From Meinhardsimonia xiamenensis (GTDB lineage: Bacteria; Pseudomonadota; Alphaproteobacteria; Rhodobacterales; Rhodobacteraceae), in NCBI RefSeq assembly GCF_900102905.1, contig NZ_FNFV01000001.1, forward strand, positions 565,501 to 629,500: 64,000 nucleotides of DNA. The letters are read 5' to 3'. Both the position numbers and the translations under genes were made by a program. Below, piece by piece: positions 7,753 to 29,244 of the stretch. Below the pieces are notes generated by a model. The model saw nothing but the letters and a program-made list of their open reading frames with translations. It was not told the origin of the DNA and made no database searches. Position 1 is the first letter of the stretch, and each line of letters begins with the position of its first letter.

Positions 7753-8832
7753 ATGACGCACATCTGGGTCCGGGCCGAGGAGCGGCCGCATGAGCAGAGG
7801 GTGGGGCTGACGCCCGAGGGCGCGCGCGAGCTCCTGCGCCGCGGCTTTGCCGTGACGGTGGAGGAGAGCCGCCAGCGCGCCATCCCCATCGACGCCTACC
7901 GCGAGGCGGGGGCCGAGATTGCCCCCGAGGGCAGCTGGCGCGAGGCACCTGCCGATGCCTTCATCTTCGGCCTCAAGGAGCTGTCCGATGATGGCAGCCC
8001 GCTCACCCATCGCCACATCATGTTCGGCCATGCTTACAAGGGCCAGCCGGCGGGGCGGCGCCTGCTGGAGCGCTTCCGGGCCGGCGGCGGGCGGCTCTAT
8101 GACCTCGAATATCTCACCGACGAGACCGGCCGGCGCGTGGCCGCCTTCGGCTACTGGGCGGGCTTTGCCGGCGCGGCGGTGGCGCTGTGGGCCTGGGCCG
8201 CGCAGGCGCAGGGCGGCATTCTCGGGCCTGTCGGCGTGGCCGGAAGCGCCGAGGCGCTGGTGCGCGACACGCAGGCGCGCCTGGATTCGGCAGCCGTTCA
8301 GCGCCCGCGCGCCATCGTCATCGGGGCGTTGGGGCGCGTGGGCACCGGGGCGAGCGATTTGTGCAAGGCTGTCGGGGTCGAGACGACCCGCTGGGACATC
8401 GCCGAGACGGCCCATGGCGGGCCGTTCCCCGAGATCCTCGAGCATGAGGTGTTTCTCAACTGCATCCTCGCCCGCCCCGGCTGCCCCGTCTTCGTTCCGG
8501 CCGATGCCGTCACGGCATCCCGCCGGCTCACGGTGATCGGCGACATCGCCTGCGACCCAGAAAGCGACTTTTCGCCCATCAAGGTCTATGACCGGGTCAC
8601 GACATGGGAGGAGCCGGTCCTGCGGGTGCATCAGGCGCCGCCGCTCGACGTGACCGCGATCGACAATCTGCCCTCGCTCCTGCCGCGCGAGAGCTCGGAA
8701 GATTTCGCCGCCCAGCTCCTGCCGCATCTGGCGACGCTCGACCGCATCGACGAGGGCGTGTGGGCGCGCGCTGCGGCGGAGTTCGAGCGGCATGTGCAGG
8801 CGCTGGGCGCGGAGAAGGAGACACAGGCATGA
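7753..8832 (+). CDS. Saccharopine dehydrogenase, NAD+, L-lysine-forming type
   Basis: 359-aa enzyme of the alanine dehydrogenase/PNT-like fold; family members interconvert saccharopine with lysine plus 2-oxoglutarate. The N-terminus ([20 protein letters not shown]) matches the family's substrate-binding start; the middle has [30 protein letters not shown] and [13 protein letters not shown]; the nucleotide-binding half includes [13 protein letters not shown]. The stop overlaps the ATG of the next gene (ATGA), which encodes the second saccharopine dehydrogenase type, so the two are surely co-translated. Together they would run the saccharopine route of lysine turnover; direction in vivo (probably catabolic) is inference. 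Confidence 0.85.
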
Positions 8833-9971
8833 CCATCCACTGGTGCGGCACCGGGCTTTCGGCGGTTCCGGGGCTGAGACGGCTGATCGAGGCAGGCCAC
8901 GATGTGACCGTGTGGAACCGCACCCGCGAGAAGGCGGTGGCGGCGGTGGGCGATCTCACCGACGCGATCCGCGCCTTCGACATCGCGGCGCTGGGCGCGG
9001 AGCTGCGCCCGGGCGATGTGGTGGTCTCGATGCTGCCGGCCGACTGGCATGTGCCGCTGGCGGAGGCGGCCATCGCCAAGGGCGCGCATTTCGTTTCCTC
9101 ATCCTACATCTCGCCCGAGATGCGCGCGCTCGACGAGCGCGCCAAGGCGGCAGGCGTGGCGCTCGTCAACGAGGTGGGGCTTGATCCGGGCATCGACCAT
9201 CTGATGGCCCATGACCTGATCGCCGAGTACCGCGAGAGCGCGGCCTTCAACCCGGCCAACACGCTTTCCTTCATCTCCTATTGCGGCGGCGTGCCGAAGC
9301 ACCCCAACCCCTTCCGCTACAAGTTCAGCTGGTCGCCTCTGGGCGTTCTGAAGGCGCTGCGCTCGCCCTCGCGGTCGATCCGTGACGGCGAGGTGTTCGA
9401 CGTCGCCCGCCCCTGGCAGGCGATCAGCCGCTACGTCGCGCCGCTGCCCGAGCCGGAGACCTTCGAGGTCTATCCAAACCGGGACTCACTGCCCTTCATG
9501 GCCGAATACGGCTTCGAGCCAGAATGGCCTGTGCGCGAGTTCGTGCGCGGCACGCTCAGGCTCGAGGGCTGGGCCGATGCCTGGCAAGAGGTCTTCGCCG
9601 AGATCGAAAGCCTTGAGGGAGAAGCAGGCGAGGCACGGTTGAGGGAGCTCTCGAATGCGCTCTGGACCGAGAACGCCTACGCGCCGGGCGAGCCCGACCG
9701 GGTGGTGCTCGTTGTGGCGCTGAGAGCCGAGCGCGAGGGCCGGCCGGTCTGGCACCAGAGCCATGTGCTCGATGCCTGGGGTGACGAACGCGGCACGGCG
9801 ATGGCGCGGCTTGTCTCGGTGCCGGTTTCGCTGGCGGTGGAGGCAGTGGGCGCGGGCCGGATTGCGCCCGGTGTCAGCGCCGCGCCGAAGGAGCGGGAGC
9901 TTGTGCGCGACTGGCTGCAGACAGTCGCAGGCCTCGCCCAGCACATGGCGCGGGTCGATCACCTCGCCTGA
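8829..9971 (+). CDS. Saccharopine dehydrogenase, glutamate-forming type (Lys9-like)
   Basis: 380-aa partner of the preceding gene; family members split saccharopine to 2-aminoadipate semialdehyde and glutamate. The N-terminal Rossmann motif is GTGLSAVPGLRRLIEAG; further family features are VSMLPADWHVPLAE, SSSYISPEMRALDE, NEVGLDPGIDHLMA and SYCGGVPKHPNPFRYKFSWSP. The start is the ATG overlapping the previous stop; a longer in-frame reading upstream is only the shadow of that gene. It converges with an EamA gene remnant whose stop lies inside its last codons. Confidence 0.88.
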   Translation: MTIHWCGTGLSAVPGLRRLIEAGHDVTVWNRTREKAVAAVGDLTDAIRAFDIAALGAELRPGDVVVSMLPADWHVPLAEAAIAKGAHFVSSSYISPEMRALDERAKAAGVALVNEVGLDPGIDHLMAHDLIAEYRESAAFNPANTLSFISYCGGVPKHPNPFRYKFSWSPLGVLKALRSPSRSIRDGEVFDVARPWQAISRYVAPLPEPETFEVYPNRDSLPFMAEYGFEPEWPVREFVRGTLRLEGWADAWQEVFAEIESLEGEAGEARLRELSNALWTENAYAPGEPDRVVLVVALRAEREGRPVWHQSHVLDAWGDERGTAMARLVSVPVSLAVEAVGAGRIAPGVSAAPKERELVRDWLQTVAGLAQHMARVDHLA

Positions 9972-10195
9972 GCGCGCCGCGCCGCCAGCCGCTCTCGGTT
10001 GAGGGTGTAGATGCCGGTGGCAACGATGATCGCCGCGCCGATCCACGTCCAGAAATCGGGGAGCTGGCCGAAGAGGAGCCAGCCGTAGACGGTTGCCCAG
10101 ATCATGATCGAGTAATGCACCGGCGCGACCACCACCGCCAGCCCGATCTCGAGCGCCTTGATGACCATGAGCTCGGCATAATACGGCGTTTCCAT
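9959..10195 (-). pseudogene. 3' remnant of an EamA-family (DMT) transporter gene
   Basis: The last 70 or so codons of an EamA transporter (VIKALEIGLAVVVAPVHYS through LNRERLAARRAQAR) with no 5' part. Over 9990-10177 the DNA matches 11107-11294, inside the intact-looking EamA gene, with about 10 mismatches in 188 bp by my count. Upstream of this tract homology stops abruptly and AT-richer DNA begins. The frame stays open into the island but that extension does not look like transporter. It is therefore a truncated paralogue, cut off by insertion or recombination. Confidence 0.75.
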
Positions 10196-10271
10196 TCGTC
10201 CAGAACGCATCACCAAATTCACTCGATCTAAAGGTAAACCTTGATGGTTGTGAAGCGGCAAGCGCTGTAGA

Positions 10272-10763
10272 TCAAGATCGGTCTCGCACTCGCAACGCTG
10301 TCCACGCTGCAAAAGCACGACGATCTTTCAGCGGGGCTCTCTTAAACATCTTAATGGCCTGCTCCGCAGCATCAATAGAGGCATGAACTTCTGTTAGCGT
10401 ATATCTCGAACTCGGGTCATAATCGGCTTTGTGGCGCTCAATTTGCAATTCGATGAACTGGTTTGCAAAATCCTCTATTTCCTTTGGGAACTTGGAAATT
10501 ACTTCGCTATTCTTGCATTGACTCTTGGCGTATCCGTGATCTACCGCTCTGTAGGCTTGCAGCCAAGCTTTTCGACTCCTGTTTGCGCTCCCCGTTCCAA
10601 TCAATAGATCTGCGCAGTTAGCGCACATGGTGTGGAAAAGTGCATAATATGCGCTGCTAATTGCACGCTTCAGATCGCTTTGTGGTGGCCTTCGTCGCCC
10701 TTTTCGCCCAACAAGGCGGCGGGCGGTCTTGATAAGATCAAGCGGCTTCACCGTCGAGCTCAT
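10272..10763 (-). CDS. HEPN-like domain protein of the island
   Basis: A 163-aa, lysine- and arginine-rich, mainly helical protein. DLKRAISSAYYALFHTMC near residue 30 and ERHKADYDPSSRYT near residue 108 resemble conserved segments of HEPN-superfamily proteins, many of which are RNases in toxin-antitoxin or defence pairs. The start ATG overlaps the 3' end of the 93-aa upstream gene by 26 bp, typical of coupled two-gene modules; its own ribosome site is weak. The codon use is AT-richer than the neighbours. HEPN membership is my recognition of motifs and is not certain; toxic or RNase activity is inference. Confidence 0.55.
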   Translation of the reverse strand: MSSTVKPLDLIKTARRLVGRKGRRRPPQSDLKRAISSAYYALFHTMCANCADLLIGTGSANRSRKAWLQAYRAVDHGYAKSQCKNSEVISKFPKEIEDFANQFIELQIERHKADYDPSSRYTLTEVHASIDAAEQAIKMFKRAPLKDRRAFAAWTALRVRDRS

Positions 10764-11019
10764 CTTGTGTTACAAAAGAGAAAACGGGGAATCCAGTCCT
10801 GTGGATTCGTGCTAGCGGCTCACGTAGATGTCGCGCCAAGCCAACAACCTTTTTCGGGTCCAGCTTTCGCCTATCCGACTCAAGCACGACGACTATGCGG
10901 AATATTCTGTCGCCTTCGTCGTCGACGTCTTCCGAAATTGAAACACGCGAAACTTTCACCGGCGCCAGCTCTGCCTCCACGACGGGCTTCACGGTCTCCA
11001 GCAAGTCGATATCTGACAT
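10738..11019 (-). CDS. Small partner protein upstream of the HEPN-like gene
   Basis: A 93-aa acidic protein. I start at the ATG 11017-11019, which has GGGAGG 7 nt upstream, rather than six codons earlier. It reads as a short alpha/beta domain: VSRVSISEDVDDEGDRIFR, then a strand IVVVLE, then LARHLREPLARI and FPVFSFVTQDELDG. I do not know a named family. Its position, size and 26-bp overlap with the HEPN-like gene suggest an antitoxin or regulatory subunit, by analogy only. Confidence 0.55.
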   Translation of the reverse strand: MSDIDLLETVKPVVEAELAPVKVSRVSISEDVDDEGDRIFRIVVVLESDRRKLDPKKVVGLARHLREPLARIHRTGFPVFSFVTQDELDGEAA

Positions 11020-11093
11020 TTGAGAGCCTCCCGCCATCAGGCTACATCAGATGGTACGTCTTGTGAATCCCGAAAAGAGGATGGCCGTTTGCC

Positions 11094-11927
11094 TTATTGC
11101 GACCGCCGCTCGCGGTTGAGCGTGTAGATGCCGGTGGCGACGATGATCGCCGCGCCGATCCACGTCCAGAAATCGGGGAGCTGGCCGAAAAGGAGCCAGC
11201 CGTAGACGGTTGCCCAGATCATGATCGAGTAATGCACCGGGGCCACCACCACCGCCTGGCCGATCTCGAGCGCCTTGATCACCATGAGTTCGGCCACCCC
11301 GGCAATGACTGCCATGCCGATCAGCAGCGCGAGTTCCAGCCCCCAGTCGGGGGTGCGCCAGACGAAGGGCAGGGGCAGGGTGAGGAGCGCGCTGCCGACG
11401 AAGGCGGTGTAGGCCACAGTCGTCTCGGTGCGGTCGGTCGCGGCGAGGCTGCGGCTGAGGATCTGGCGCAGCGAGAAGAGCGCCGCCGCCCCGATCACCA
11501 GAAACGCCGCCGGATGCAGCACGCCAAGGCCGGGGCGGATGACGATCAGCGTTCCGACAAAGCCCACGATCACGGCCGCCCACCGCCGCAGGCCCACCGG
11601 CTCGCGCAGGAAGATCGCGCCCATCAGCGTGACGATGAAGGGCGCGACGAAGCTGATCGCCACCGCATCGGCAAGCGGCACGAAGGCGACGGCGGTGATG
11701 AAGAGCGTGGCCGATGTGGCCGCGAGCGCGCCGCGCACGAATTGCGCCATCGGCTGGCCCGTGTCGAGAAGCGCCCGCCCGCGCAGTGCCAGAAGCACGA
11801 AGGCGCCGGCGAGAAGCCCCAGCTGCCGCGTCCAGACGATCTGGATCGGGTGCAGGCTCTGAGTGAGGAACTTTCCCTGCGCATCGACCGCGGCAAAGAG
11901 AAACATCGCCAGCGCCATGACCAGCAC
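11094..11927 (-). CDS. EamA-family (DMT) transporter with unclear start
   Basis: Drug/metabolite-type exporter, 277 aa from a GTG at 11925-11927, with about ten hydrophobic segments in two EamA repeats (first FVLLALRGRALL region, second AELMVIKALEIGQAVVVAPV). No ATG, GTG or TTG lies in frame between this GTG and an upstream TAG, and there is no ribosome site before the GTG, yet upstream codons (ARTDNSRAVLVMALAMF) look like a normal EamA N-terminus. So either it uses a rare start such as CTG or its 5' end is damaged. It lies downstream of a second EamA gene (12066-13010) on the same strand. Confidence 0.65.
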   Translation of the reverse strand: MLVMALAMFLFAAVDAQGKFLTQSLHPIQIVWTRQLGLLAGAFVLLALRGRALLDTGQPMAQFVRGALAATSATLFITAVAFVPLADAVAISFVAPFIVTLMGAIFLREPVGLRRWAAVIVGFVGTLIVIRPGLGVLHPAAFLVIGAAALFSLRQILSRSLAATDRTETTVAYTAFVGSALLTLPLPFVWRTPDWGLELALLIGMAVIAGVAELMVIKALEIGQAVVVAPVHYSIMIWATVYGWLLFGQLPDFWTWIGAAIIVATGIYTLNRERRSQ

Positions 11928-12065: not shown

Positions 12066-13010
12066 TCAGTGGGTTCGGGTCTGGGCACGGAGCTTGGCCT
12101 CGGCGATGCGGCGCTGGCCGAGCTGGCGCTCGCGCAGGATGATCGCCACGCCTCCCGCCACGATCAGCGCCGCGCCCGCGAGCATCGGCACCGTCGGCAC
12201 CTCGGCAAAGACCACATAGCCGATGATCAGCGACCAGATCATCGAGACATAGGTGAAGGGGGCCAGCACGCTCGCGTCGGCGTAGCGGTAGCTCGCGGTC
12301 AGCAGGATCTGGCCCACCCCGCCGAAGAGCCCCGCGCCGATCATGAAGGCCCATTCCTCCGGGCTTGGCCAGACCCAGCCGAAGGGCAGGGTGAGGAGCG
12401 ACAGCATCGAGGCCGTGAGCGCGAAGTAGAAGACGATCGCTTCGGTCCGCTCGACCGAGGTGAGGCTCTTGATGAAGATCTGGGCGAGTGCGGCCAGCGT
12501 TGCCGAGGCAAGCGTGGCCAGCGCTCCGAACAGCGCGCCCTCGCCGCCCGAGAAGGTCAGCCGCGGCCACATCACGATGAGCACGCCCGCAAGCCCCGCG
12601 GCAACCGCCGAAAGGCGGATGAGCCGGATGCGCTCGCCAAGGATGAGCGCGGCGAAGAGCACGATCAGGATCGGCGTGGCGAAGCGAATCGCCGTGACCT
12701 CCGGCAGCGGCAGGTAATGCAGCCCGGTGAAGCCGAGCCCCATGGCGAGGCTGCCCGCCACGCCGCGCAACGCGTGCCCCTTCCAGTTGCGGGTGCGCAG
12801 CCCGTGCGGAAACTGCCCCTGCACCGCAAGCCAGATCACGATCACCGGCAGCGAGAAGGCGGAACGGAAGAACACCGCCTCCCCCGGCGGGATGCCCGGC
12901 GCGGCCTTGATGAAGCTCGTCATCACCACGAAGAGGGTGACGGCGGTGGTGGTCAGGAGAATGCCGCGCAGGGGGTGCATGGGCGGAGACACTTCGTTGC
13001 CAACACCCAT
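12066..13010 (-). CDS. EamA-family (DMT) transporter
   Basis: 314-aa membrane protein with about ten hydrophobic segments, starting MHPLRGILLTTTAVTLFVV after a 10-residue leader. Family features: PPGEAVFFRSAFSLPVIVIW in the first repeat and ASYRYADASVLAPFTYVSM in the second, ending in a cytoplasmic basic tail (RRIAEAKLRAQTRTH). The ATG at 13008-13010 has AGGGG upstream; the internal ATG at 12980 has none. It is first of a tandem set of three EamA sequences, the last two being much more alike to each other. Confidence 0.85.
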   Translation of the reverse strand: MGVGNEVSPPMHPLRGILLTTTAVTLFVVMTSFIKAAPGIPPGEAVFFRSAFSLPVIVIWLAVQGQFPHGLRTRNWKGHALRGVAGSLAMGLGFTGLHYLPLPEVTAIRFATPILIVLFAALILGERIRLIRLSAVAAGLAGVLIVMWPRLTFSGGEGALFGALATLASATLAALAQIFIKSLTSVERTEAIVFYFALTASMLSLLTLPFGWVWPSPEEWAFMIGAGLFGGVGQILLTASYRYADASVLAPFTYVSMIWSLIIGYVVFAEVPTVPMLAGAALIVAGGVAIILRERQLGQRRIAEAKLRAQTRTH

Positions 13011-13060
13011 GCTCTAGCCCCTGTCACGGGAAAATGACAGGGGGGTGAATGGCTTGCGGC

Positions 13061-13258
13061 TCAGGCCTCGCGGCCACGGGCGATGCGCAGATACTGCAGC
13101 AACCGCGCGGTATCGGAGGCCCTGCGGGGCCGCCGGGCCAGAGTGCGCAGCTTCGGGTGACGGTCCTGCAGCAGGTAGGCGCGGTCAAGCAGCGCATAGA
13201 CGCGCGCCCGCGCGGTATTGGATTCGCTGTGGCCGCGATCGATGAGATGTCGGCGCAT
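13061..13258 (-). CDS. Small basic hypothetical protein downstream of queG
   Basis: A 65-aa arginine-rich protein (MRRHLIDRGHSESNTARARV at the start, then LLDRAYLLQDRHPKLRTL). Chosen because GGGAGGACCACCG precedes the ATG at 13256-13258; the open frame continues upstream but without a ribosome site. It follows queG (stop 13338) on the same strand. No family recognised. Confidence 0.55.
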   Translation of the reverse strand: MRRHLIDRGHSESNTARARVYALLDRAYLLQDRHPKLRTLARRPRRASDTARLLQYLRIARGREA

Positions 13259-13337
13259 CGGTGGTCCTCCCTTGCTGCCTCGATCGTTGACTTCAGCGTA
13301 GCATGTGGGTGTCGCGCGCGCCAAGTGAAGGGGCTCC

Positions 13338-14393
13338 TCACCTCTGGCGAAGCCGTGCCGCAGCCCATCTTCCCGCCTCCGCGACGGTTTCGTCGGCATC
13401 GTTGCTCAGTTCCTGGGCAATCGGCAGAAGGCGGGGGCTGGCCGAGTTGCCGATGGCGTAGGCCACGTTGCGCGCGAAGCGGTTGCGGCCGATTCGCTTT
13501 ATCGGCGAGCCGGAGAAGAAGGCGCGAAAGCCCGCGTCGTCGAGCCGGGCGAGCTGTGCCAGATCGGGCGCGCGCAGCTCCTCGCGCATGGCATAGCGCG
13601 CCTCGCTTGCGGCGCGGGCGAACTTGTTCCACGGGCACACGGCAAGGCAGTCGTCGCAGCCATAGATGCGGTTGCCGAGGGCGGGCCTCAGCTCCGGGTC
13701 GACCGGGCCGGCATGCTCGATGGTCAGGTAGGAGATGCAGCGCCGGGCATCGAGCTGGAAGGGCGCGGGAAAGGCGCGCGTGGGGCAGATGTCGAGGCAG
13801 GCGGTGCAGCTGCCGCAATGCTCGACCTCCGGCGCATCGGGGGGCAATTCGAGCGTGGTGAAGATGGCGCCGAGAAAGAACCAGTTGCCGAGCCGGCGGC
13901 TGAGAAGATTCGTGTGCTTGCCCTGCCAGCCGAGCCCCGCGGCCTGACCGAGCGGTTTCTCCATCACCGGCGCGGTATCAACGAAGACCTTGATCTCGCC
14001 ACCGCCGGCGCGCGCAAGCAGCCAGCGCCCAAGCCGCTTGAGCTTCTTCTTGATGACGTCGTGATAGTCCCGGCCCCCGGCATAGACAGAGATCGCGCCG
14101 GCCTCGCGCTTCTTCAGCACCTCGAGCGGGTCGTGGCGCGGGGTATAGAGATCGGCGAGCATCACGATCGAGCGCGCCTCGGGCCAGAGCGCGGCGGGGT
14201 TGCCGCGCCATTCCATCCGCTCGGCCATCCAGCGCATGGTGCCGTGGCGGCCAAGCTCGACGAAGTGCCTGAGCCGCTCTGCCGCCTCGGGGATGGCATC
14301 GGGCGTGGTGACCCGCGCTTCGGCAAAGCCCACCGCCTCGGCCTCGCGCAGAAGCTCCGCCTTGAGCGCGGCGGGATCGGGGGCGGCGCTCAT
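13338..14393 (-). CDS. queG: Epoxyqueuosine reductase
   Basis: Cobalamin- and iron-sulfur-dependent enzyme of the last step of queuosine synthesis on tRNA, 351 aa. The two 4Fe-4S motifs are [12 protein letters not shown] and [14 protein letters not shown]; the N-terminal domain has the family's [16 protein letters not shown] and [33 protein letters not shown] precedes the clusters. The C-terminal part ([20 protein letters not shown]) looks like a short HEAT-type repeat, usual for QueG. It follows the GST gene by 15 bp. Confidence 0.93.
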
Positions 14394-14408
14394 CGCAGCC
14401 GCCCCGCC

Positions 14409-15074
14409 TCAGAAATCGAGGTCGGCATAATGCGGCGGCGGCGGGAAGCCGGGCACGTGGTCAGCGAGGATCGAGCGGAAGGCCGGGCGCGACTTGATCT
14501 TCGCATACCACTCGCGGACGTTGGCGTTGCGGTTCCAGTCCACGTCCGAGATATAGTCGAGCGCCGAGAGGTGGGCGGCGGCGGCAAAATCGGCAAGGCT
14601 TATCGCGTCGCCCGCCAGCCAGCGCCGGTGGTCGAGGAGCCAGCCCATGTAGTCGAGGTGGTACTTGATCGCCTGCGCACCCTCCTTGACCAGCCGCGAG
14701 TCGGGGTATCCCTTGCCCATCAGCTTCTTCGTCACCCGCTCATGCAGCAGCTTCGAGGTAACCTCGGCGTTGAACTTGTCATCGAACCAGGCGACCAGGC
14801 GGCGCACCTCGTAGCGCCCCTCGGGCGTTTTTGGCATCAGCGGCGGGTCGGGGTAGAGCTCCTCGATGTATTCGCAGATCGCCGCGCTTTCGGCCAGCGT
14901 GCGGCCGTTCATCTTCAGAACCGGCACCTTGCCCGCGGGATTGCGGCGCAGGAACTCGCGGCTCGGCTGCCAGTAGCGCTCTTCCACGAGCTCCACCTCG
15001 AGGCGTTTTTCTCCCAGCGACAGGCGAACCTTGCGGCAGAATGGCGAGAGGGGGACGTGAAACAGTCGGATCAT
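14409..15074 (-). CDS. Glutathione S-transferase family protein
   Basis: 221-aa soluble protein with a thioredoxin-like N-terminal domain (MIRLFHVPLSPFCRKVRLSL; the SPFC motif carries the likely catalytic Ser/Cys) and the cis-proline segment GKVPVLKMNG with LAESAAICEYIEELYP for glutathione binding. The C-terminal all-helical domain contains WLAGDAISLADFAAAAHLS, typical of GSTs. First gene of a probable operon with queG. The substrate is unknown. Confidence 0.88.
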   Translation of the reverse strand: MIRLFHVPLSPFCRKVRLSLGEKRLEVELVEERYWQPSREFLRRNPAGKVPVLKMNGRTLAESAAICEYIEELYPDPPLMPKTPEGRYEVRRLVAWFDDKFNAEVTSKLLHERVTKKLMGKGYPDSRLVKEGAQAIKYHLDYMGWLLDHRRWLAGDAISLADFAAAAHLSALDYISDVDWNRNANVREWYAKIKSRPAFRSILADHVPGFPPPPHYADLDF

Positions 15075-15129
15075 GGCCTGAACCGTTTGCGAGAGAACCC
15101 GCCCTCAATGCCGCGAAGCCGCGTCCGAT

Positions 15130-15861
15130 TCAACTCTTGCCCGTGTCATCCTCGAAACAGGCGGAGCGTCCGTCGCGCCGGATGGTCTCGGCGCCATCCA
15201 TGATCGCCGCGGCGCGCCGGCGCGTGGCGGCATCGGGCGCAACCGGCGAGCGGCTGCGGGGCGCGGGCAGGACCGCCGCCAGAAGCGCGGCCTGGCGCGG
15301 GGTGAGATCGGCGGCCGCGACACCGAAGTACTTCATTGCCGCCGCGCGCACCCCGAACACCCCCTCGCCGAATTCGGCGACGTTGAGGTATACCTCGAGA
15401 ATACGCCGCTTCGACCAGATCAGCTCCACGAGCGGGGTCAGCAACGCCTCGAGCGCCTTGCGCGTCCAGCTCCGCCCCTGCCAGAGATAGACATTCTTCA
15501 CCGTCTGCTGGGTGATCGTCGAGGCGCCGCGCGTCGCACCGGCGTCGATGGCGGCGCGGATCGCGGCGAGATCGAACCCCCAGTGCAGGCAGAAGTTCGC
15601 GTCCTCCGCCGCCACGACCGAGCGGCGCATCACGGGCGCGACCTCCTCGAGCGGTACCCAGGCGTGCTCTATCTGGCCGAGCCGGCGCCGCTCCTCGGCC
15701 ATGGTGCGGGTGACGGGCGGATCGAAGACGGCAAAGACGCAGACCGCGAGGAGCGCCGCCGCAGCCGCGATCAGCGCCGTGCGCCACAGGAGCCGGCGCA
15801 GCGCGCGGATCATGCTGCGGCCCCTACGGGGGCTTCGGCCAGCCTTCGGTTTTCGTGTCAT
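15130..15861 (-). CDS. mtgA: Monofunctional biosynthetic peptidoglycan transglycosylase
   Basis: GT51 glycan polymerase anchored in the inner membrane, about 243 aa from ATG 15861; an alternative ATG at 15813 with AGGGG upstream gives 227 aa. After a basic stretch comes one membrane segment (TALIAAAAALLAVCVFAVF). Catalytic-domain motifs: VAAEDANFCLHWGFD (catalytic Glu), GASTITQQTVKNVYL and KRRILEVYLNVAEFGEGVFG. No transpeptidase domain follows, as expected for MtgA. Confidence 0.92.
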   Translation of the reverse strand: MTRKPKAGRSPRRGRSMIRALRRLLWRTALIAAAAALLAVCVFAVFDPPVTRTMAEERRRLGQIEHAWVPLEEVAPVMRRSVVAAEDANFCLHWGFDLAAIRAAIDAGATRGASTITQQTVKNVYLWQGRSWTRKALEALLTPLVELIWSKRRILEVYLNVAEFGEGVFGVRAAAMKYFGVAAADLTPRQAALLAAVLPAPRSRSPVAPDAATRRRAAAIMDGAETIRRDGRSACFEDDTGKS

Positions 15862-15987
15862 CGCAACCTGATGCCGGCGGGGCGCGCGCCGGTCAACCCC
15901 GGCAAATTGCCCGGCGCAGGCGTTGCAAGCCGGCGCCAAACCCCCATCTCAGTGCCAAGCGCTTCACTCAGCCAGCGGAGACAGGAG

Positions 15988-16335
15988 ATGACCGAGAAGG
16001 ACTTCAAGGACAAGGCCCGTACCTTTGTCGAGCAGATCGAGGTGGCGGGCAACCAGCTCATCGATGAGGTCAAGCGGCTCATTCGAGAGGGCAATGTCCG
16101 CAAGTTGCGGCTCAAGGACAAGGACGGAGACTTCGTGCTCGAGCTGCCGGTGACGGCAGGGGTGATCGTCGGTGGCGCCGTGGCCCTGACCGCGCCCTGG
16201 CTCGCGGTTCTGGGCGTTGTTGCGGGGCTCATCGCGCGCATCGAGATCGAGGTCGAGCGCGAGGGTGAACCGGGGCAAGGCGCCGCGCCCGAAACACCGA
16301 CTTCAAGCCGGGCAAATGACGAGGCGGCCTCCTGA
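15988..16335 (+). CDS. DUF4342 domain protein
   Basis: A 115-aa protein starting MTEKDFKDKARTFVEQIEVA with GGAGACAGGAG before the ATG. The N-terminal half is charged and helical (LIDEVKRLIREGNVRKLRLK), followed by a short strand (FVLELPVTAG) and one or two hydrophobic segments (VIVGGAVALTAPWLAVLGVVAGLIA), then a hydrophilic tail. This is the layout of DUF4342 proteins, whose function is unknown to me. It converges with gltB. Confidence 0.75.
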   Translation: MTEKDFKDKARTFVEQIEVAGNQLIDEVKRLIREGNVRKLRLKDKDGDFVLELPVTAGVIVGGAVALTAPWLAVLGVVAGLIARIEIEVEREGEPGQGAAPETPTSSRANDEAAS

Positions 16336-16350
16336 GCGAAGGCCGCCTCT
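16321..16350 (+). terminator. Hairpin overlapping the DUF4342 stop codon
   Basis: A perfect 9-bp stem, GAGGCGGCC (16321-16329) with GGCCGCCTC (16341-16349); the loop contains the TGA of the DUF4342 gene. It is followed only by TCGTT, so it is a weak intrinsic terminator at best. Confidence 0.55.
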
Positions 16351-16374
16351 CGTTGCAACGGTGCCCGATCCCGG

Positions 16375-20916
<4,542 letters not shown>

Positions 20917-20999
20917 GGCGGATCACTCCTTGCGGAAATGCCGGGAGCCGCGTGGCCCGCGCCGGCATCTTTTGTGACGGTTGCGGTTCATTGCGCCGT

Positions 21000-22436
21000 T
21001 CATTCGGCGGCAATCTGCCGCGCCGCGGCGGCGAAGCGTTCAAGAATGGCATCGGCGGCCTCGCGCCCGTCGCGGATCGCCCAGACGACGAGGCTCGCGC
21101 CCCGCACGATGTCGCCCGCGGCATAGACCCCGTCGAGGCTGGTGGCATGGGTGCGGAAGTCGGCCTTGATGGTACCCCAGCGTGTCACCTCGAGGCCATC
21201 CACGCCCCAGAGCCGGGGCAGCTCCTCCGGCTCGAAGCCCAGCGCCTTGATGACCAGATCGGCGGGCTCGACATACTCCGCCCCCTCTATCGGCTCGGGC
21301 TTCTGGCGTCCCGTGGCATCGGGCGCGCCGAGGCGCATCTTCTGCACGATGACCCCTTCCACCGGGTCGCCGACGAAACCTTTCGGAGCAGTGAGCCAGA
21401 CGAACTCGACGCCTTCCTCCTCGGCGTTCTGCACCTCGCGCACCGAGCCCGGCATGTTCGCACGGTCTCGCCGGTAGAGGCACTTCACGCTCACCGCGTC
21501 CTGGCGGATCGCGGTGCGTACGCAGTCCATCGCCGTGTCGCCGCCGCCGATCACCACCACGCGCTTGCCGGCCGCGTTCAGCGTGCCGTCCTCGAACTCG
21601 GGCACGCGATCGCCGAAGCCCACGCGATTGGCCGCGGTGAGATAGTCGAGCGCGCGCACGATCCCGCGCGCACCGGCGCCGGGCGCGTCGATCACCCGCG
21701 CCTTGTAGACGCCGGTGGCGATCAGCACGGCGTCATGCGCGGCGCGGATCTCGTCGAAGCCGATGTCCTCGCCGACGTTGCAGTCGAGGCGGAAGGTCAC
21801 GCCGCCCTTCTCGAGCTGTTCGATCCGGCGCATGACGACCGGCTTTTCGAGCTTGAAGCCGGGAATGCCGTAGGTGAGCAGACCCCCGGCCCGGTCATAC
21901 CGATCATAGACGGTGACCTGCACGCCGGCACGCCGGAGCCTGTCGGCCGCGGCAAGCCCGGCCGGCCCCGCGCCGATGATCCCGACGCTCTCTTCGCGTT
22001 CATGGGCGGGGGAGGGGATGTCGACCCAGCCCTGCTCCCAGGCGGTGTCGGTGAGGAACTTCTCGATCGCGCCGATGGTTACCGTGCCATGGCCCGCCTG
22101 TTCGATCACGCAATTGCCCTCGCAAAGCCGGTCCTGAGGGCAGATGCGGCCGCAGATTTCGGGAAAGGTGTTCGTGTACTGGCTCAGGCGGTAGGCCTCT
22201 TCGAGCCGGCCCTCGGCGGTGAGCTTGAGCCAGTCGGGGATGTTGTTGTGCAGCGGGCAATGCGTCTGGCAGTAGGGCACGCCGCACTGACTGCAGCGCG
22301 CCGCCTGCTGCGCGGCCTTTTCCGCGGCAAATTCGCCATAGATCTCGCGGAAGTCGTGCGCGCGTGCGGGCGCGGGACGCTTCGGCGGCGTTTCCATCGG
22401 TACATCGACGAACTGGAGCATTCTGAGCTTCTTCAC
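21000..22436 (-). CDS. gltD: Glutamate synthase (NADPH) small subunit
   Basis: 478-aa flavoprotein that feeds NADPH electrons to GltB. I start at a GTG (22434-22436; VKKLRMLQFVDVP) with AAGGAG 7 nt upstream; the frame runs further up but without support. N-terminal cysteines for two 4Fe-4S clusters are in CSQCGVPYCQTHCP and RICPQDRLCEGNC. The FAD site is GIIGAGPAGLAAADRL; the NADPH site is VVVIGGGDTAMDCVRTA. The order gltD-gltB with an 83-bp gap suggests one operon. Confidence 0.95.
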   Translation of the reverse strand: MKKLRMLQFVDVPMETPPKRPAPARAHDFREIYGEFAAEKAAQQAARCSQCGVPYCQTHCPLHNNIPDWLKLTAEGRLEEAYRLSQYTNTFPEICGRICPQDRLCEGNCVIEQAGHGTVTIGAIEKFLTDTAWEQGWVDIPSPAHEREESVGIIGAGPAGLAAADRLRRAGVQVTVYDRYDRAGGLLTYGIPGFKLEKPVVMRRIEQLEKGGVTFRLDCNVGEDIGFDEIRAAHDAVLIATGVYKARVIDAPGAGARGIVRALDYLTAANRVGFGDRVPEFEDGTLNAAGKRVVVIGGGDTAMDCVRTAIRQDAVSVKCLYRRDRANMPGSVREVQNAEEEGVEFVWLTAPKGFVGDPVEGVIVQKMRLGAPDATGRQKPEPIEGAEYVEPADLVIKALGFEPEELPRLWGVDGLEVTRWGTIKADFRTHATSLDGVYAAGDIVRGASLVVWAIRDGREAADAILERFAAAARQIAAE

Positions 22437-22502
22437 GGTGGGGCTCCTTGCTGTCCTCGGTGCTCCTCCGGCCCGCGCGCCGGGGTCATCCGTTCTGGTC
22501 GC

Positions 22503-22629
22503 GGTGTCATGTACATGATCGCGACACCAAAGAAAAGTAAGAAATACTGACATAACTTTCGCCGCAATCCGCGCGGGCTGGAGCCGACCGGGTCAAAATG
22601 CGTGATAACAGGTAAGTAATACTGACTTG
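22503..22629. promoter_or_regulatory. gltD upstream region: palindrome and paired AT-rich direct repeats
   Basis: Between gltD and uppP the DNA is AT-richer than usual. TCATGTACATGA (22507-22518) is a perfect palindrome nested in GGTGTC...GACACC (22503-22528). Two near-direct repeats follow, TAAGAAATACTGACATAA (22538-22555) and TAAGTAATACTGACTTG (22613-22629), 75 bp apart. These look like regulator sites for the gltDB promoter or for uppP. The CTGACATAA in the first repeat also occurs at 25867-25875, in front of the MarR gene. Confidence 0.4.
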
Positions 22630-22694
22630 TTTTTGAGCTTTCCATTGCGGGTGAAGCGGATAGGTTTCGGGCGTTCCTCACGCGAGCCCGGCCC

Positions 22695-23498
22695 ATGCCC
22701 ATCCTGCATCTGCTTCTCGTCGCCACGATCCAGGGGATCACCGAGTTCCTGCCCATCTCCTCATCAGGGCATCTGATCCTCCTGCCGCAGCTCACCGGTG
22801 CGGCTGACCAGGGGCTGGCGGTGGATGTGGCCGTGCATGTGGGCACGCTTCTGGCGGTGATTCTGTATTTCTGGCGCGATGTGCGCCTGGCGGCGGGCGG
22901 CCTGCCGGCGCTTCTTGCAGGGCGCGTCGGGGAGCCGGGCGCGCTGCTCGCGCTGCTGCTGGTCATCGCCACCGTTCCCGTCGTCCTGGCCGGTGCGCTG
23001 CTCGAACTCGCGGGGCTGACCGCGGCGCTGCGCTCTGTTGCCGTCATTGGCTGGACAACGCTGATCTTCGGGCTGCTTCTGTGGTGGGCCGACAGGACAG
23101 GACAGCAGGTCAAGCGAAGCGAGGAATGGTGCCTGCGTGACGCCGTGGTGATGGGCCTGTGGCAGGCGCTGGCGCTCATCCCCGGCACCTCGCGGTCGGG
23201 TGTGACCATTACCGCCGCGCGGCGCCTCGGCTACGCCCGTCACGACGCCGCGCGCCTGTCGATGCTGATGTCGATACCGACCATTCTTGCGTCGGGGGCG
23301 CTCCTCGGTGCCGAGGTCGCGCTTTCGGGCGACCCCGGGCGGCTGTCCGACATGGTGATCGGCGCGGCATTCGCGTTCGCCGCGGCGCTCCTCGCGCTCA
23401 GTCTGATGATGCGCCTCCTGCGCAGCCTCAGTTTCACCCCCTACGTCATCTATCGCGTGGGGCTGGGCCTTGTGCTGCTGTGGGTCGCCTACGGCTGA
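22695..23498 (+). CDS. uppP: Undecaprenyl-diphosphatase
   Basis: 267-aa BacA/UppP-type membrane phosphatase that recycles the C55 lipid carrier for cell-wall synthesis. The two family motifs are ITEFLPISSSGHLILLP near residue 15 and LIPGTSRSGVTITAARR in the second half. About eight membrane segments; the C-terminus ends YRVGLGLVLLWVAYG. The stop is 4 bp from the stop of the convergent NDUFA9-like gene. Confidence 0.95.
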   Translation: MPILHLLLVATIQGITEFLPISSSGHLILLPQLTGAADQGLAVDVAVHVGTLLAVILYFWRDVRLAAGGLPALLAGRVGEPGALLALLLVIATVPVVLAGALLELAGLTAALRSVAVIGWTTLIFGLLLWWADRTGQQVKRSEEWCLRDAVVMGLWQALALIPGTSRSGVTITAARRLGYARHDAARLSMLMSIPTILASGALLGAEVALSGDPGRLSDMVIGAAFAFAAALLALSLMMRLLRSLSFTPYVIYRVGLGLVLLWVAYG

Positions 23499-23502
23499 CC
23501 GT

Positions 23503-24501
23503 TCACGCGCCGTGCCGGTGCCGCGCCCTGAGCCGCCGGGCGCTGTCGCGTATCGCCGCGTATTGCCCGAGTGGGCGATAGGGCCACAGATACTCGGGCA
23601 GCACCGCTTCCATCGGCGTCGGCGTGACGCCGAGGTCAATGAGCCCGCGCGCCGTCTCCGACACCACGTTGTCGCGCCGCAGAAGCCGGATCTGGTCACG
23701 CGTGACGGGCGGCGTCAGAAGCCCGATGGTCAGCGCCGACAGCGCCTCGCTCACGCCGCCGATCGCCGCGCCCGCCCAGAAGGGAAGCGGCAGGATCAGC
23801 CGGCGCCGCTCGATGACGTCGAGCATGCGGCGCATGAGCCCGGCGAAATCGTCGATCTCCGGCCCGCCGAGCTCATACACGCCGGCGGTCTCGTCGTTGT
23901 CGATGGCATTCACCGCCGCGGCCGCGACGTCTTCGACATAGACGGGCTGGAAGCGCGTGCGCGCCCCGAAGACCGGAATCACCGGCGACATCCGTGCCAT
24001 GGCGGCGAAACGGTTGAAGAACTGATCCTCGGGTCCGAACACCACCGATGGGCGCAATATCACCGCGTCCGGCCGCGCGGCCAGCACCGCCGCCTCACCG
24101 GCGGCCTTGGTGCGGGCATAGAGGCTCGGGCTCTGCGGATCGGCGCCGAGGGCGGAGACGTGCACCACGCGCTCAACGCCCTCCTCGGCAGCAATGCGCG
24201 CGACCCGACCCGCGCCCTCGTCATGCACGGCGCTGAAGCTGTTGGCGCCGGACGGCGTGAGAACGCCCACGCAGTTGACCACCGCGTCGGCGGAACGGGT
24301 GGCAAGCCGCACGCTTGCCTCGTCGCGGATGTTGGCGAAGACGGGCTCGATCTGGCCGGGAACGCCGTAGGTGCGGGTAAAGAGCGCCTCGTTGGGCCGG
24401 CGCACCGCGACCCGGATGCGCCAGCCATCCTCGGCCAGCCGTTCGGTGATGTAGCGCCCGATGAACCCGGAGCCGCCGAAAACCGTCACGAGCCTCGACA
24501 T
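23503..24501 (-). CDS. NDUFA9-like NAD(P)-binding protein (atypical SDR)
   Basis: 332-aa protein of the complex I NDUFA9 / NAD(P)H-binding subgroup. The N-terminal nucleotide motif is TVFGGSGFIGRYITERLA; later features are VNCVGVLTPSGANSFSAVH, VHVSALGADPQSPSLYARTK (YxxxK) and RPSVVFGPEDQFFNRFA. The ATG has AGAGGAGGCAGGCG upstream. In alphaproteobacteria such proteins are quinone- or complex I-associated or act in quinone biosynthesis; which applies here is open. Confidence 0.8.
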   Translation of the reverse strand: MSRLVTVFGGSGFIGRYITERLAEDGWRIRVAVRRPNEALFTRTYGVPGQIEPVFANIRDEASVRLATRSADAVVNCVGVLTPSGANSFSAVHDEGAGRVARIAAEEGVERVVHVSALGADPQSPSLYARTKAAGEAAVLAARPDAVILRPSVVFGPEDQFFNRFAAMARMSPVIPVFGARTRFQPVYVEDVAAAAVNAIDNDETAGVYELGGPEIDDFAGLMRRMLDVIERRRLILPLPFWAGAAIGGVSEALSALTIGLLTPPVTRDQIRLLRRDNVVSETARGLIDLGVTPTPMEAVLPEYLWPYRPLGQYAAIRDSARRLRARHRHGA

Positions 24502-24583
24502 CGCCTGCCTCCTCTGGATGGGTCGGCTCTCCTTAGCGTTCCGTGCGCGCGCAAACAAGACGACCGGAACGCGCGATCGGCCG

Positions 24584-24612
24584 TTGACACCCCCCTCGGG
24601 CGGAGATACATC
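24584..24612 (+). promoter_or_regulatory. Sigma-70-type promoter of tRNA-Leu
   Basis: TTGACA (24584-24589), a 17-nt spacer and TACATC (24607-24612) place a start site a few bases before the tRNA 5' end at 24629. It is the cleanest housekeeping promoter in the window; the -10 box is imperfect. Confidence 0.7.
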
Positions 24613-24628
24613 GCCGCTCACGACACCT

Positions 24629-24715
24629 GCCCAGGTGGCGGAACTGGTAGACGCGCTAGCTTCAGGTGCTAGTGCCCGTATGGGCGTGGAGGTTCGAGTC
24701 CTCTCCTGGGCACCA
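24629..24715 (+). tRNA. tRNA-Leu (CAG)
   Basis: 87-nt class II tRNA with encoded CCA. The acceptor arm is GCCCAGG with CCTGGGC, then discriminator A and CCA (24713-24715). The anticodon arm is CTAGC-TTCAGGT-GCTAG, giving anticodon CAG. The long variable arm (TGCCCGTATGGGCG) and T arm (GAGGTTCGAGTCCTC) are intact. It is transcribed between the NDUFA9-like gene and ilvE, both on the other strand. Confidence 0.96.
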
Positions 24716-24780
24716 TTCCCCCGCAGAACTGTTTCCCGAAGAACGTGATACCGGCCATGGTGGGGCGGGCATCGTCCCGC

Positions 24781-24830
24781 ACGGGCGCGCCCTTGCCCCG
24801 ACGCGGGCGCCCTTGCCCCGACGCGGGCGC
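24781..24830. repeat. 20-bp tandem repeat, about 2.5 units
   Basis: A unit containing CCTTGCCCCGACGCGGGCGC occurs at 24791-24810 and 24811-24830 exactly, with a partial, two-mismatch copy just before. It lies between the tRNA and the ilvE end hairpin. No function is evident. Confidence 0.7.
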
Positions 24831-24841
24831 AGGTGCGGGCG

Positions 24842-24864
24842 CGCGGCACCCTTGACGTGCCGCG
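24842..24864 (-). terminator. ilvE downstream hairpin
   Basis: Perfect 8-bp stem CGCGGCAC (24842-24849) with GTGCCGCG (24857-24864), 7-nt loop, starting about 10 nt past the ilvE stop. No T-run follows on the minus strand, so the terminator call rests on position. Confidence 0.5.
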
Positions 24865-24873
24865 ACCCGGAGC

Positions 24874-25740
24874 TCAGCTGCGCACCAGCTTCTCGTAGGC
24901 CTCGGCGATCTCGCGGGTGAGCTGGCCGACCTCGAAGGTGTAGTCGCCGATCTGACCCACGGGCGTGACCTCGGCCGCCGTGCCCGTCAGCCAGCACTGC
25001 TGGAAGTCCTCGAGCTCGCGCGGCTCGATGTGGCGCTCGTGCACCTTGATCTGGCGGTCCTTCAGAAGGCCGATCACCGTCTGCCGCGTCAGTCCGTTCA
25101 GGAAACAGTCGGGCTTCGGCGTGTGCACCTCGCCATCCTTCACGAAGAAGATGTTCGCACCCGTCGCTTCGGCCACATAGCCGCGATAGTCCATGAACAA
25201 CGCATCCGAGCAGCCCTTGTTCTCGGCCTGGTGCTTGGAGATCGTGCAGATCATGTAGAGCCCGGCCGCCTTGGCGTGAACGGGAATCGTCTCGGGGCTC
25301 GGACGCTTCCAGCGCGCGATGTCGAGCTTCGCACCCTTGTACTTGGCGTCGCCGTAGTAGCTGCCCCACTCCCAGGCGGCGATGGCGAGGCGGACGGGAT
25401 TGCGGCGGGCGGCAACGCCCATGTCTTCGCCGGAGCCACGCCAGGCGACGGCGCGCACATAGGCGTCGGTGAGGTTGTTGGCCTTCAGCACCTGCTCCTT
25501 GGCCTGCTCGATTTGATCGACGGTCCAGGGAATCTCGAAATCGAGGCATTTCGCCGAGAAGTGCAGCCGCTCGGAATGTGCGCGGGAAAGGAAGATCCTG
25601 CCACCATAGGCGCGCTCGCCCTCGAAGACCGACGAGGCGTAGTGCAGCGCGTGGGTCAGAATGTGCACGTTCGCCTCGCGCCAGGGCACAAGGCGCCCGT
25701 CCATCCAGATGTAGCCGTCCCGATCGTCATAGCCCGACAT
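24874..25740 (-). CDS. ilvE: Branched-chain amino acid aminotransferase
   Basis: 288-aa PLP fold-type IV enzyme catalysing the last step of valine, leucine and isoleucine synthesis. I start at MSGYDDRDGYIWMDG, with AAAGGAA upstream, not at the in-frame ATG 24 codons earlier. Motifs: HALHYASSVFEGERAYGG, SDALFMDYRGYVAEATGANIFF and PDCFLNGLTRQTVIGL. The PLP lysine is probably within AKYKGAKLDIARWKRP. It diverges from the MarR-type regulator. Confidence 0.9.
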   Translation of the reverse strand: MSGYDDRDGYIWMDGRLVPWREANVHILTHALHYASSVFEGERAYGGRIFLSRAHSERLHFSAKCLDFEIPWTVDQIEQAKEQVLKANNLTDAYVRAVAWRGSGEDMGVAARRNPVRLAIAAWEWGSYYGDAKYKGAKLDIARWKRPSPETIPVHAKAAGLYMICTISKHQAENKGCSDALFMDYRGYVAEATGANIFFVKDGEVHTPKPDCFLNGLTRQTVIGLLKDRQIKVHERHIEPRELEDFQQCWLTGTAAEVTPVGQIGDYTFEVGQLTREIAEAYEKLVRS

Positions 25741-25854
25741 GACCGTGTTCCTTTCCCGATGCCGCAACCGGCTTTTCACATGTTGCGCGCGATAGGTCCG
25801 AAACGGATACAATCTTGCGCAAAATCGGCAAACCGCTAACAGCCAGACCTTGGA

Positions 25855-25888
25855 ATGTCAACAAGGCTGACATAAACTGAGAATGTCA
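25855..25888. promoter_or_regulatory. Three ATGTCA/TGACAT half-sites between ilvE and the MarR gene
   Basis: ATGTCA (25855-25860), TGACAT (25868-25873) and ATGTCA (25883-25888) form alternating inverted repeats with 7- and 9-nt spacers, just before the MarR start (25908). A dyad of this size next to a MarR gene is a natural autoregulatory operator; it could also control divergent ilvE. Confidence 0.5.
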
Positions 25889-25907
25889 GGAAACGGGATT
25901 TGCGGGC

Positions 25908-26414
25908 ATGACCGATCACGCTGGACCGGGGGCGGGGGGCGAGAGCCTTCTGTATCTGACCGACGAACAGCTCCGTAAGGGAATCGAGGCGATGTTCTTC
26001 GCCTATCGCGGTTTCACTGCCGACCCGGACAGGATCCTTGCCGAGAACGGCTACGGGCGGGCCCATCACCGCGCGCTGCACTTCATCCGCCGCTGTCCGG
26101 GAACGACCGTGAACAACCTGCTCGACATTCTGGGCGTGACCAAGCAGTCGCTCAACCGCGTGCTGCGCACGCTCATCGAGGACGGGCTCGTGGAAAGCCG
26201 CGTGGGCAATCGTGACAAGCGTGAGCGTCACCTCTACCTGACCGACAAAGGCGCCGAGCTGGAGACCCGGCTTTCGGAGGTGCAGCGCGAGCGCATGCGC
26301 GCCGCCTACCGCGCCGCCGGGCCCGAGGCGGTCGCCGGTTTCCGAAAGGTGCTCGAGGCGATGATGGACCCGCAGTTGCGCGCCCATTTCAACCGCCTCA
26401 AGGAGGGTGGATGA
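25908..26414 (+). CDS. petP: MarR-family regulator (PetP-like)
   Basis: 168-aa winged-helix repressor. The MarR core runs from HHRALHFIRRCPGTTVNNLL through GVTKQSLNRVLRTLIEDGLV (recognition helix) to the wing KRERHLYLTDKG; N- and C-terminal helices form the dimer interface. Its stop overlaps the next gene, a response regulator, by ATGA. This is the arrangement I recognise from Rhodobacter petP-petR, which is the basis for the symbol. The inverted repeats just upstream are a likely operator. Confidence 0.78.
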   Translation: MTDHAGPGAGGESLLYLTDEQLRKGIEAMFFAYRGFTADPDRILAENGYGRAHHRALHFIRRCPGTTVNNLLDILGVTKQSLNRVLRTLIEDGLVESRVGNRDKRERHLYLTDKGAELETRLSEVQRERMRAAYRAAGPEAVAGFRKVLEAMMDPQLRAHFNRLKEGG

Positions 26415-27133: not shown

Positions 27134-27158
27134 TCCGCCGAGCAGGAGCGAGAGGCCC

Positions 27159-28097: not shown

Positions 28098-28336
28098 GCG
28101 AGAAGCCGGTCGAGGAAATGTCCTTCGAGGAGGCGATGCGCGCCCTTGAGGAGGTGGTGCGGCAGCTCGAGTCGGGCGAGGTGGAGCTCGAGAAGTCGAT
28201 CGAGCTCTACGAGCGCGGCGCGAAGCTGAAGAAGCGCTGCGAGGAGAAGCTGCGCGAGGCGGAGGAGAAGATCGAGGCGATCACGCTGGATGAGACCGGC
28301 ACGCCCAAGGGCACGACGCCGGTCGAGGGACTGTGA
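28094..28336 (+). CDS. xseB: Exodeoxyribonuclease VII small subunit
   Basis: 80-aa, highly charged, helical protein with the XseB core MSFEEAMRALEEVVRQLESG then ELEKSIELYERGAKLKKRCE. It partners the large subunit XseA, not in this window. It overlaps the ends of both neighbours (ATGA upstream, GTGA with ispA downstream), within the deacetylase-xseB-ispA-dxs run. Confidence 0.93.
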   Translation: MSEKPVEEMSFEEAMRALEEVVRQLESGEVELEKSIELYERGAKLKKRCEEKLREAEEKIEAITLDETGTPKGTTPVEGL

Positions 28337-29217: not shown

Positions 29218-29244
29218 TCGGACGCCCCCGAGGGGCGCGGAGAG

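What the first reader, a model, noticed from the sequence alone, without database searches (positions are those of the whole stretch)
10178..11093. AT-richer HEPN-like two-gene island next to a broken EamA gene
Seen: a clear drop in GC content, a 163-aa protein with AYYALFH and RHKADYDP segments, a 93-aa acidic partner whose gene overlaps it by 26 bp, and a truncated EamA tail on one side. Known: HEPN proteins are frequent RNase toxins in two-gene modules. Inference: a small, possibly mobile toxin-antitoxin or defence unit whose partner is not a family I recognise.
Basis: partly seen in the sequence, partly recalled or inferred. Interest (0 to 1): 0.6.

Follow-up and report, generated by a model that had tools for sequence, protein, structure and literature searches.

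The report
Mobile HEPN toxin–antitoxin-like pair, new partner
Two small overlapping genes in an AT-rich insert look like a mobile poison-and-antidote module: the likely poison has a known HEPN fold, the likely antidote belongs to a family not described in the databases searched, and such modules sit beside gene ends that are sometimes duplicated around them.

Summary
A ~0.9 kb insert (GC 51% against 68%, the lowest 900-base stretch in the window) carries P2 (93 aa, acidic) and P1 (163 aa, basic), overlapping by 26 bp.

P1 is a HEPN protein of the AF0298/HEPN-T kind: best structural match 2hsb, invariant R..D, conserved upstream H, no canonical Rx4-6H. P2 is not a nucleotidyltransferase by motif; it founds a family without Pfam, NCBIfam or PADLOC match, predicted KH-II-like without GxxG.

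The pair occurs in about 8% of family genera, on Rhizobium and Acidisoma plasmids and in Acidobacteria. P2 almost always directly precedes P1. Eleven genera carry it at the ilvE 3' end, from at least two deep P1 lineages. Broken P1 with intact P2 outnumbers the reverse 17 to 1. Four other loci also have a neighbouring gene's 3' end duplicated across the pair.

Best reading: type II-like toxin–antitoxin unit, P1 toxin, P2 antitoxin, spread horizontally. Toxicity and RNase activity are untested.

The parts
10738..11019 (-). P2, 93-aa acidic protein (pI about 5.0), proposed antitoxin; first gene of the pair. A longer 99-aa reading starts at 11037.
   Evidence: ORF; homologue start and family alignment A1; AF2 model pLDDT 85.8; pI
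10272..10763 (-). P1, 163-aa basic HEPN protein (pI about 10), AF0298/HEPN-T type, proposed toxin; conserved R110, D114, Y115 and H76. Alternative GTG start at 10751.
   Evidence: ORF; profile match to 2hsb, E 2e-6; AF2 model pLDDT 90.4; VIA Z 11.7 to 2hsb; column counts
10738..10763 (-). 26-bp overlap of P2 end and P1 start (14 bp if the conserved-geometry GTG start at 10751 is used)
11027..11032 (-). Shine-Dalgarno-like GGGAGG 7 nt before the 93-aa P2 start
   Evidence: direct reading
10178..11099 (.). AT-rich non-duplicated insert between the two EamA 3'-end copies
11094..11927 (-). intact EamA transporter gene (EamA1) whose 3' end abuts the pair
   Evidence: PF00892 3.9e-23
11100..11294 (-). 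right copy of the EamA 3' end (195 nt, end of the intact gene)
9983..10177 (-). left copy of the EamA 3' end (direct repeat, 94-95% identical); its reading frame runs on to a stop at 9959 that overlaps the end of the convergent dehydrogenase gene (8829-9971)

Best explanation
The pair is a small, horizontally spread toxin-antitoxin-type module. P1 is a HEPN-T (AF0298-like) toxin, probably an RNA-acting protein that uses the invariant Arg110 with Asp114/Tyr115 and the alternative His76. P2, translated first and coupled to P1 by overlap, is an acidic antitoxin that holds the basic toxin by direct binding. P2 is not the usual MNT nucleotidyltransferase. In this genome the module lies at the 3' end of an EamA gene, flanked by two diverged copies of that gene end. 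The simplest account is that a donor piece carrying an EamA 3' end plus the pair recombined in and displaced the resident gene tail. Shown: gene pair, predicted HEPN fold, linkage, sporadic and discordant distribution, repeats, asymmetric decay. Inferred: toxicity, RNase action, neutralisation by binding, route of entry.
For: HEPN fold and AF0298-type residues (motif described in PMC3710099). Gene order small acidic first, basic HEPN second, overlapping; P1 more basic than P2 in 29 of 32 pairs. Linkage tested from both sides: P1-seeded loci and P2-seeded search; distances of P1 and P2 co-vary (Mantel rho 0.67, 0 of 2000 permutations). Sporadic: 35/389 and 31/395 genomes; plasmids of Rhizobium and Acidisoma. 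Same site, different lineages: 11 genera at the ilvE 3' end, one clade rejected, p-AU 2e-5. P1 broken with intact P2 in 17 loci, the reverse in 1; length-weighted p 0.003. Flanking repeats with E <= 1e-7 in 5/57 pairs against 3/547 control windows, p 3e-4.
Against: No growth or RNase data for any member were found. P1 lacks the canonical Rx4-6H motif, and its Pfam HEPN score is below the gathering cut-off (15.9 against 22 bits). Some broken P1 genes lie in fragmented metagenome assemblies and could be sequencing errors, and the broken-gene count was made by eye after seeing the data. Only a minority of pairs show flanking repeats, and no close relative with an empty site was available (no other genome of the genus appeared in the searches). 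In the window the pair is next to EamA1, not ilvE, so the hotspot does not explain this copy directly.
Confidence: 0.66

Rival explanations
1. P1 is a non-catalytic RNA-binding HEPN protein, and P1 and P2 form a regulatory complex (as proposed for MtlR-type HEPN proteins) rather than a toxin with its antitoxin.
For: The canonical RNase motif is absent; HEPN proteins without it may bind RNA without cutting it (PMC3710099). P2 is predicted KH-II-like, a fold class of RNA binders.
Against: Strong conservation of R110, D114 and H76 down to Acidobacteria; plasmid carriage and patchy, discordant distribution; decay biased to P1.
Confidence: 0.17
2. The pair is an anti-phage (abortive infection) unit triggered by infection.
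For: HEPN proteins are frequent in Abi systems (PMC3710099); the pair is patchy and AT-rich.
Against: No PADLOC family matched convincingly; no relative in the phage collection, nor in viral contigs by pattern scan; many copies sit at housekeeping gene ends such as ilvE. An arrangement of two genes alone cannot exclude it.
Confidence: 0.1
3. An ordinary resident two-gene operon of unknown housekeeping role, inherited vertically at the EamA/ilvE locus and lost many times.
For: In G195, G106, G193, G463 and G497 the pair lies next to a relative of the window's second EamA gene, and in 11 genera it lies at the ilvE 3' end; the site label is clustered on the tree more than chance (3 of 500 shuffles).
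Against: One clade for the ilvE-site copies is rejected (p-AU 2e-5). G193, closer to the window by EamA2, QueG and GST, has a P1 of only 31% identity, while a genome of another family (G075) has 58%. Plasmid copies exist.
Confidence: 0.05

Closest known systems
HEPN-T, AF0298 type (PF05168 clade; PDB 2hsb)
   Same: Predicted fold (Z 11.7 to 2hsb); R..D in place of R..H; second conserved H upstream between helices 2 and 3, as described in PMC3710099
   Different: Partner is not an MNT; extra C-terminal helix; Pfam score below cut-off
HepT/MntA (HEPN-MNT) toxin-antitoxin module
   Same: Two-gene order with small partner first and HEPN second; HEPN fold
   Different: Partner lacks the MNT signature and has a different predicted topology; HEPN motif is the D-variant, not Rx4H
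KH type II domain proteins (ribosomal protein S3, Era, RbfA)
   Same: Predicted a-b-b-a-b topology of P2; best VIA matches, Z up to 9.5 with rmsd 3.6 over 81 residues
   Different: No GxxG loop in the family; no sequence similarity; similarity of a small fold only
Insertion with long target duplication of restriction-modification genes (Nobusato et al. 2000, as cited in PMC3031569)
   Same: Selfish-type gene unit without a recombinase of its own, flanked by long direct repeats of target DNA of varying length
   Different: Here the repeats are gene 3' ends that differ by 5-18% and mostly keep coding sense, which suggests imported gene ends rather than simple duplication; the unit is a HEPN pair

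Membership tests
HEPN superfamily, HEPN-T AF0298 subtype | HEPN helical fold | tested here: met
   AF2 pLDDT 90.4; 2hsb Z 11.7, and nearly all of the next 18 VIA rows are HEPN chains; Foldseek rank 1 is 2hsb, at E 0.11
HEPN superfamily, HEPN-T AF0298 subtype | Conserved R with D replacing H, plus a conserved H N-terminal to it | tested here: met
   R110 36/36, D114 36/36, H76 35/36; description in PMC3710099
HEPN superfamily, HEPN-T AF0298 subtype | Sequence profile membership | tested here: inconclusive
   PF05168 15.9 bits, below the cut-off of 22; family profile finds 2hsb at 2e-6 and 9xbd at 3e-6
HEPN superfamily, HEPN-T AF0298 subtype | RNase activity | not testable with these tools
   needs biochemistry
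HEPN-MNT toxin-antitoxin (HepT/MntA) | MNT partner with G-S ... D-x-D nucleotidyltransferase signature | tested here: not met
   No such signature in 39 aligned P2 sequences; no Pfam nucleotidyltransferase match in any of 39 members
HEPN-MNT toxin-antitoxin (HepT/MntA) | Partner has the nucleotidyltransferase fold | tested here: inconclusive
   The predicted topology a-b-b-a-b-a matches KH-II-like chains; absence of MNT chains from the list is no proof
Type II toxin-antitoxin module | Compact co-directional two-gene operon, small partner first | tested here: met
Type II toxin-antitoxin module | Horizontal, patchy distribution including plasmids | tested here: met
Type II toxin-antitoxin module | Second gene toxic alone, first gene neutralises by protein binding | not testable with these tools
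   Only indirect: P1 broken with P2 kept, 17 to 1
KH type II domain | GxxG loop | tested here: not met
   alignment A1
KH type II domain | KH-II topology | tested here: inconclusive
   VIA Z 9.5 at best, Foldseek E not below 0.003
Insertion with long target duplication | Unit flanked by long direct repeats of target sequence | tested here: met
   Window 190 bp; G465 245 bp; G332 recR 101 bp; G195 ilvE 44 bp; G292 31 bp
Insertion with long target duplication | Empty, single-copy target in a close relative | not tested
   No other genome of the genus appeared in the searches

The most novel reading that the evidence does not exclude
A toxin-antitoxin unit without any recombinase that spreads by riding on gene 3' ends. 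Each transfer brings a foreign copy of a housekeeping gene's 3' end that restores the gene, puts the pair behind it, and leaves the old gene tail as a repeat through which the pair can later be deleted cleanly. Its antitoxin is a new KH-like family.
Probability: 0.27. Interest if true: 0.68.

Novelty: new variant of a known kind. Interest (0 to 1): 0.52.

Why it matters
HEPN toxins are thought to be among the most abundant prokaryotic toxins, and the AF0298-type variant with a replaced catalytic histidine has no tested mechanism that I found. A compact pair with a non-MNT partner gives a direct way to test whether that variant is toxic and how it is held in check. The duplicated gene ends also suggest a way for small addiction modules to move without a transposase or integrase.

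Tried and rejected
Canonical HEPN RNase motif (Rx4-6H): absent; replaced by Rx3D with an upstream H. MNT partner: rejected by motif. Phage origin: no tblastn hit in phages, and two viral-contig pattern scans found no relative; the match to phrog_5176 (1.8e-7) leaves remote phage relatives possible. Partner on plasmids by direct tblastn: none, but the neighbour of P1 on the Rhizobium plasmids matches the P2 profile. Promoter and terminator scans: nothing above shuffles. Inverted repeats at the insert ends: none. Weak Cas1, CARF, DUF5944 and cystatin matches were judged chance. MNT chains were absent from the VIA list for P2, which proves nothing by itself. EamA1 next to the dehydrogenase in relatives, to see the pre-insertion site: not found. 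A 28-bp repeat at G538 is low-complexity and not a gene end. Flanking repeats in genome G142 were left out of the final count because that genome holds many copies of the pair. Two control samples gave different background rates (4/462 and 13/442 at E 1e-3), so the stricter E 1e-7 comparison is the one quoted; that threshold was chosen after the hits were seen.

Full report
What is there. The window lies in a 3.13-Mb genome of a family that includes Rhodobacteraceae/Paracoccaceae genomes. Between 10178 and 11099 the GC content drops to about 51%, the lowest 900-base stretch in the 64 kb. The stretch encodes, on the minus strand, P2 (93 aa, start 11019 with GGGAGG seven bases upstream) and P1 (163 aa), overlapping by 26 bp. 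Many homologous pairs overlap by 14 bp, which would put the P1 start at the GTG at 10751; this is inference.

The EamA neighbourhood. Nine of the ten differences fall at third positions and are synonymous (p about 1e-4 against random substitution). Both copies therefore diverged mainly while under selection, so one of them probably came in from another lineage. The frame of the left tail ends at a stop that overlaps the end of the convergent dehydrogenase gene, which suggests that it is the resident end and that the incoming piece brought a replacement end plus the pair (inference).

P1. The single sequence matches Pfam HEPN only below threshold (15.9 against 22 bits) and phrog_5176 at 1.8e-7. 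A profile of 36 relatives finds PDB 2hsb (AF0298) at 2e-6 and two recent HEPN entries. The AF2 model (pLDDT 90.4) has 2hsb as its best match (Z 11.7, rmsd 3.4 over 118 residues), followed by sacsin HEPN, TT1696, P95883 and the MntA-HepT and HEPN-MNT toxins. Foldseek alone is weaker (2hsb rank 1 at E 0.11). Invariant or nearly invariant residues are R33, S36, Y39, Y40, F43, H44, R72, H76, R110, A113, D114 and Y115. The canonical Rx4-6H is replaced by R-x3-D, with a conserved H upstream: the AF0298 variant that Anantharaman et al. (PMC3710099) discuss as a possible alternative RNase site.

P2. Thirty-nine aligned members share a D-x-D-G-D-P turn and a C-terminal F-P but no known family; the single sequence has no NCBIfam match and only chance-level PADLOC and PHROGs matches. 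The AF2 model (pLDDT 85.8) is a-b-b-a-b-a. The best VIA matches are KH type II proteins (S3, Era, RbfA; Z up to 9.5), but there is no GxxG loop, and Foldseek gives no E below 0.003, so only a KH-II-like topology is claimed. The MNT signature is absent.

Linkage. P1-seeded loci have a P2-type gene directly upstream in nearly every case, including diverged ones that the profile misses but the reading frames show. Exceptions: L060 (order reversed, P1 fragmentary), L061 (none recognised, P1 truncated), L053 (contig edge) and G014:C52 (P2 truncated). The reverse search found P2 in 28 of 293 genomes. The hits without an intact P1 show remnants: a short N-terminal stub in L116, both ends of P1 in L124, an apparent transposon end in L123. 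L195, in the multi-copy genome G142, is a P2-like gene without P1. Distances of P1 and P2 co-vary (Mantel rho 0.67).

Decay. Counted by eye, P1 is interrupted or deleted with P2 intact in 17 loci (L035, L043, L045, L046, L055, L057 first copy, L060, L069, L116, L123, L124, L180, L185, L190/L235, L194, L228, L232); the reverse holds in one (L189/L234); in L037 both are broken. With length weighting p = 0.003. This fits P1 as the costly gene. Assembly errors may inflate the count.

Distribution and mobility. P1 is in 35 of 389 relatives and 31 of 395 family genomes, one per genus. It also occurs on 30 plasmid records, mostly Rhizobium, next to plasmid functions in the cases read, and in Acidobacteria. 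In 11 genera the pair ends a few bases from the ilvE stop codon, convergent with it (G195, G011, G206, G106, G193, G274, G453, G463, G497, G520, G522). Their P1 proteins are not one clade (p-AU 2e-5). Of 29 relatives' ilvE loci read, one carries the pair; in L159, L168, L169 and L176 an EamA2-like gene lies in the ilvE neighbourhood without a pair. In the window, ilvE lies 14 kb away, and the block GST-QueG-EamA2 next to the pair matches the block beside ilvE in G195 and G193, consistent with a local inversion (inference).

Gene-end repeats. Four other loci show the same layout as the window, intact gene 3' end, pair, second copy of that 3' end: ilvE in G195 (44 bp, 91%, with different stop codons), recR in G332 (101 bp, 82%), a glutamine-synthetase-like gene in G292 (31 bp, 90%) and a gene in G465 (245 bp, 93%). 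Gene names recR and glutamine synthetase are read from the protein sequence, not from a profile search. At E <= 1e-7, 5 of 57 pairs have such repeats against 3 of 547 control windows (p 3e-4); at 1e-20, 3 of 57 against 0 of 547. Repeat length varies and no common core was seen, so a site-specific integrase is unlikely. Insertion with long and variable target duplication has been described for restriction-modification genes (PMC3031569). Here the copies differ by 5-18% and mostly keep coding sense, which fits recombination with foreign DNA anchored in a conserved gene.

Mechanism proposed. P2 and P1 are made from one transcript with P2 first; acidic P2 holds basic P1; if the genes are lost or P2 falls, P1 acts on RNA. 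Steps shown: gene order, overlap, predicted fold, residues, linkage, distribution. Steps inferred: toxicity, RNA target, neutralisation.

Noticed in passing
L063, L064, L068, L072, L078, L093, L224, L226, L229, L230, L231 (3' side of ilvE): The 3' end of ilvE is a recurrent site for HEPN pairs from at least two deep P1 lineages in 11 genera of the family.
   Followed up: partly
L094, L095, L179-L181, L183-L185, L195 (genome G142): One family member carries about nine diverged copies of the pair, some in tandem, with repeats between them.
   Followed up: no
window 12066-31194: Gene order GST-QueG-EamA2 and ilvE-marR-HDAC-ispA-dxs matches relatives in pieces, but with gltB/gltD and others between and the first block turned round, as after a local inversion.
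   Followed up: partly
L060 5001-5606: A Dehalococcoidia locus with the order reversed: a fragmentary P1 before an intact P2-like gene.
   Followed up: no
L131: The Acidisoma plasmid pair is followed by an integrase, a RelE/ParE-type toxin pair and a Cas3''-annotated gene.
   Followed up: no
L228, L235, L237: A diverged P2 type (VRFRGASEVE ending, ...DPAVWVWAML...) goes with a diverged P1 type and may mark a separate subfamily.
   Followed up: no
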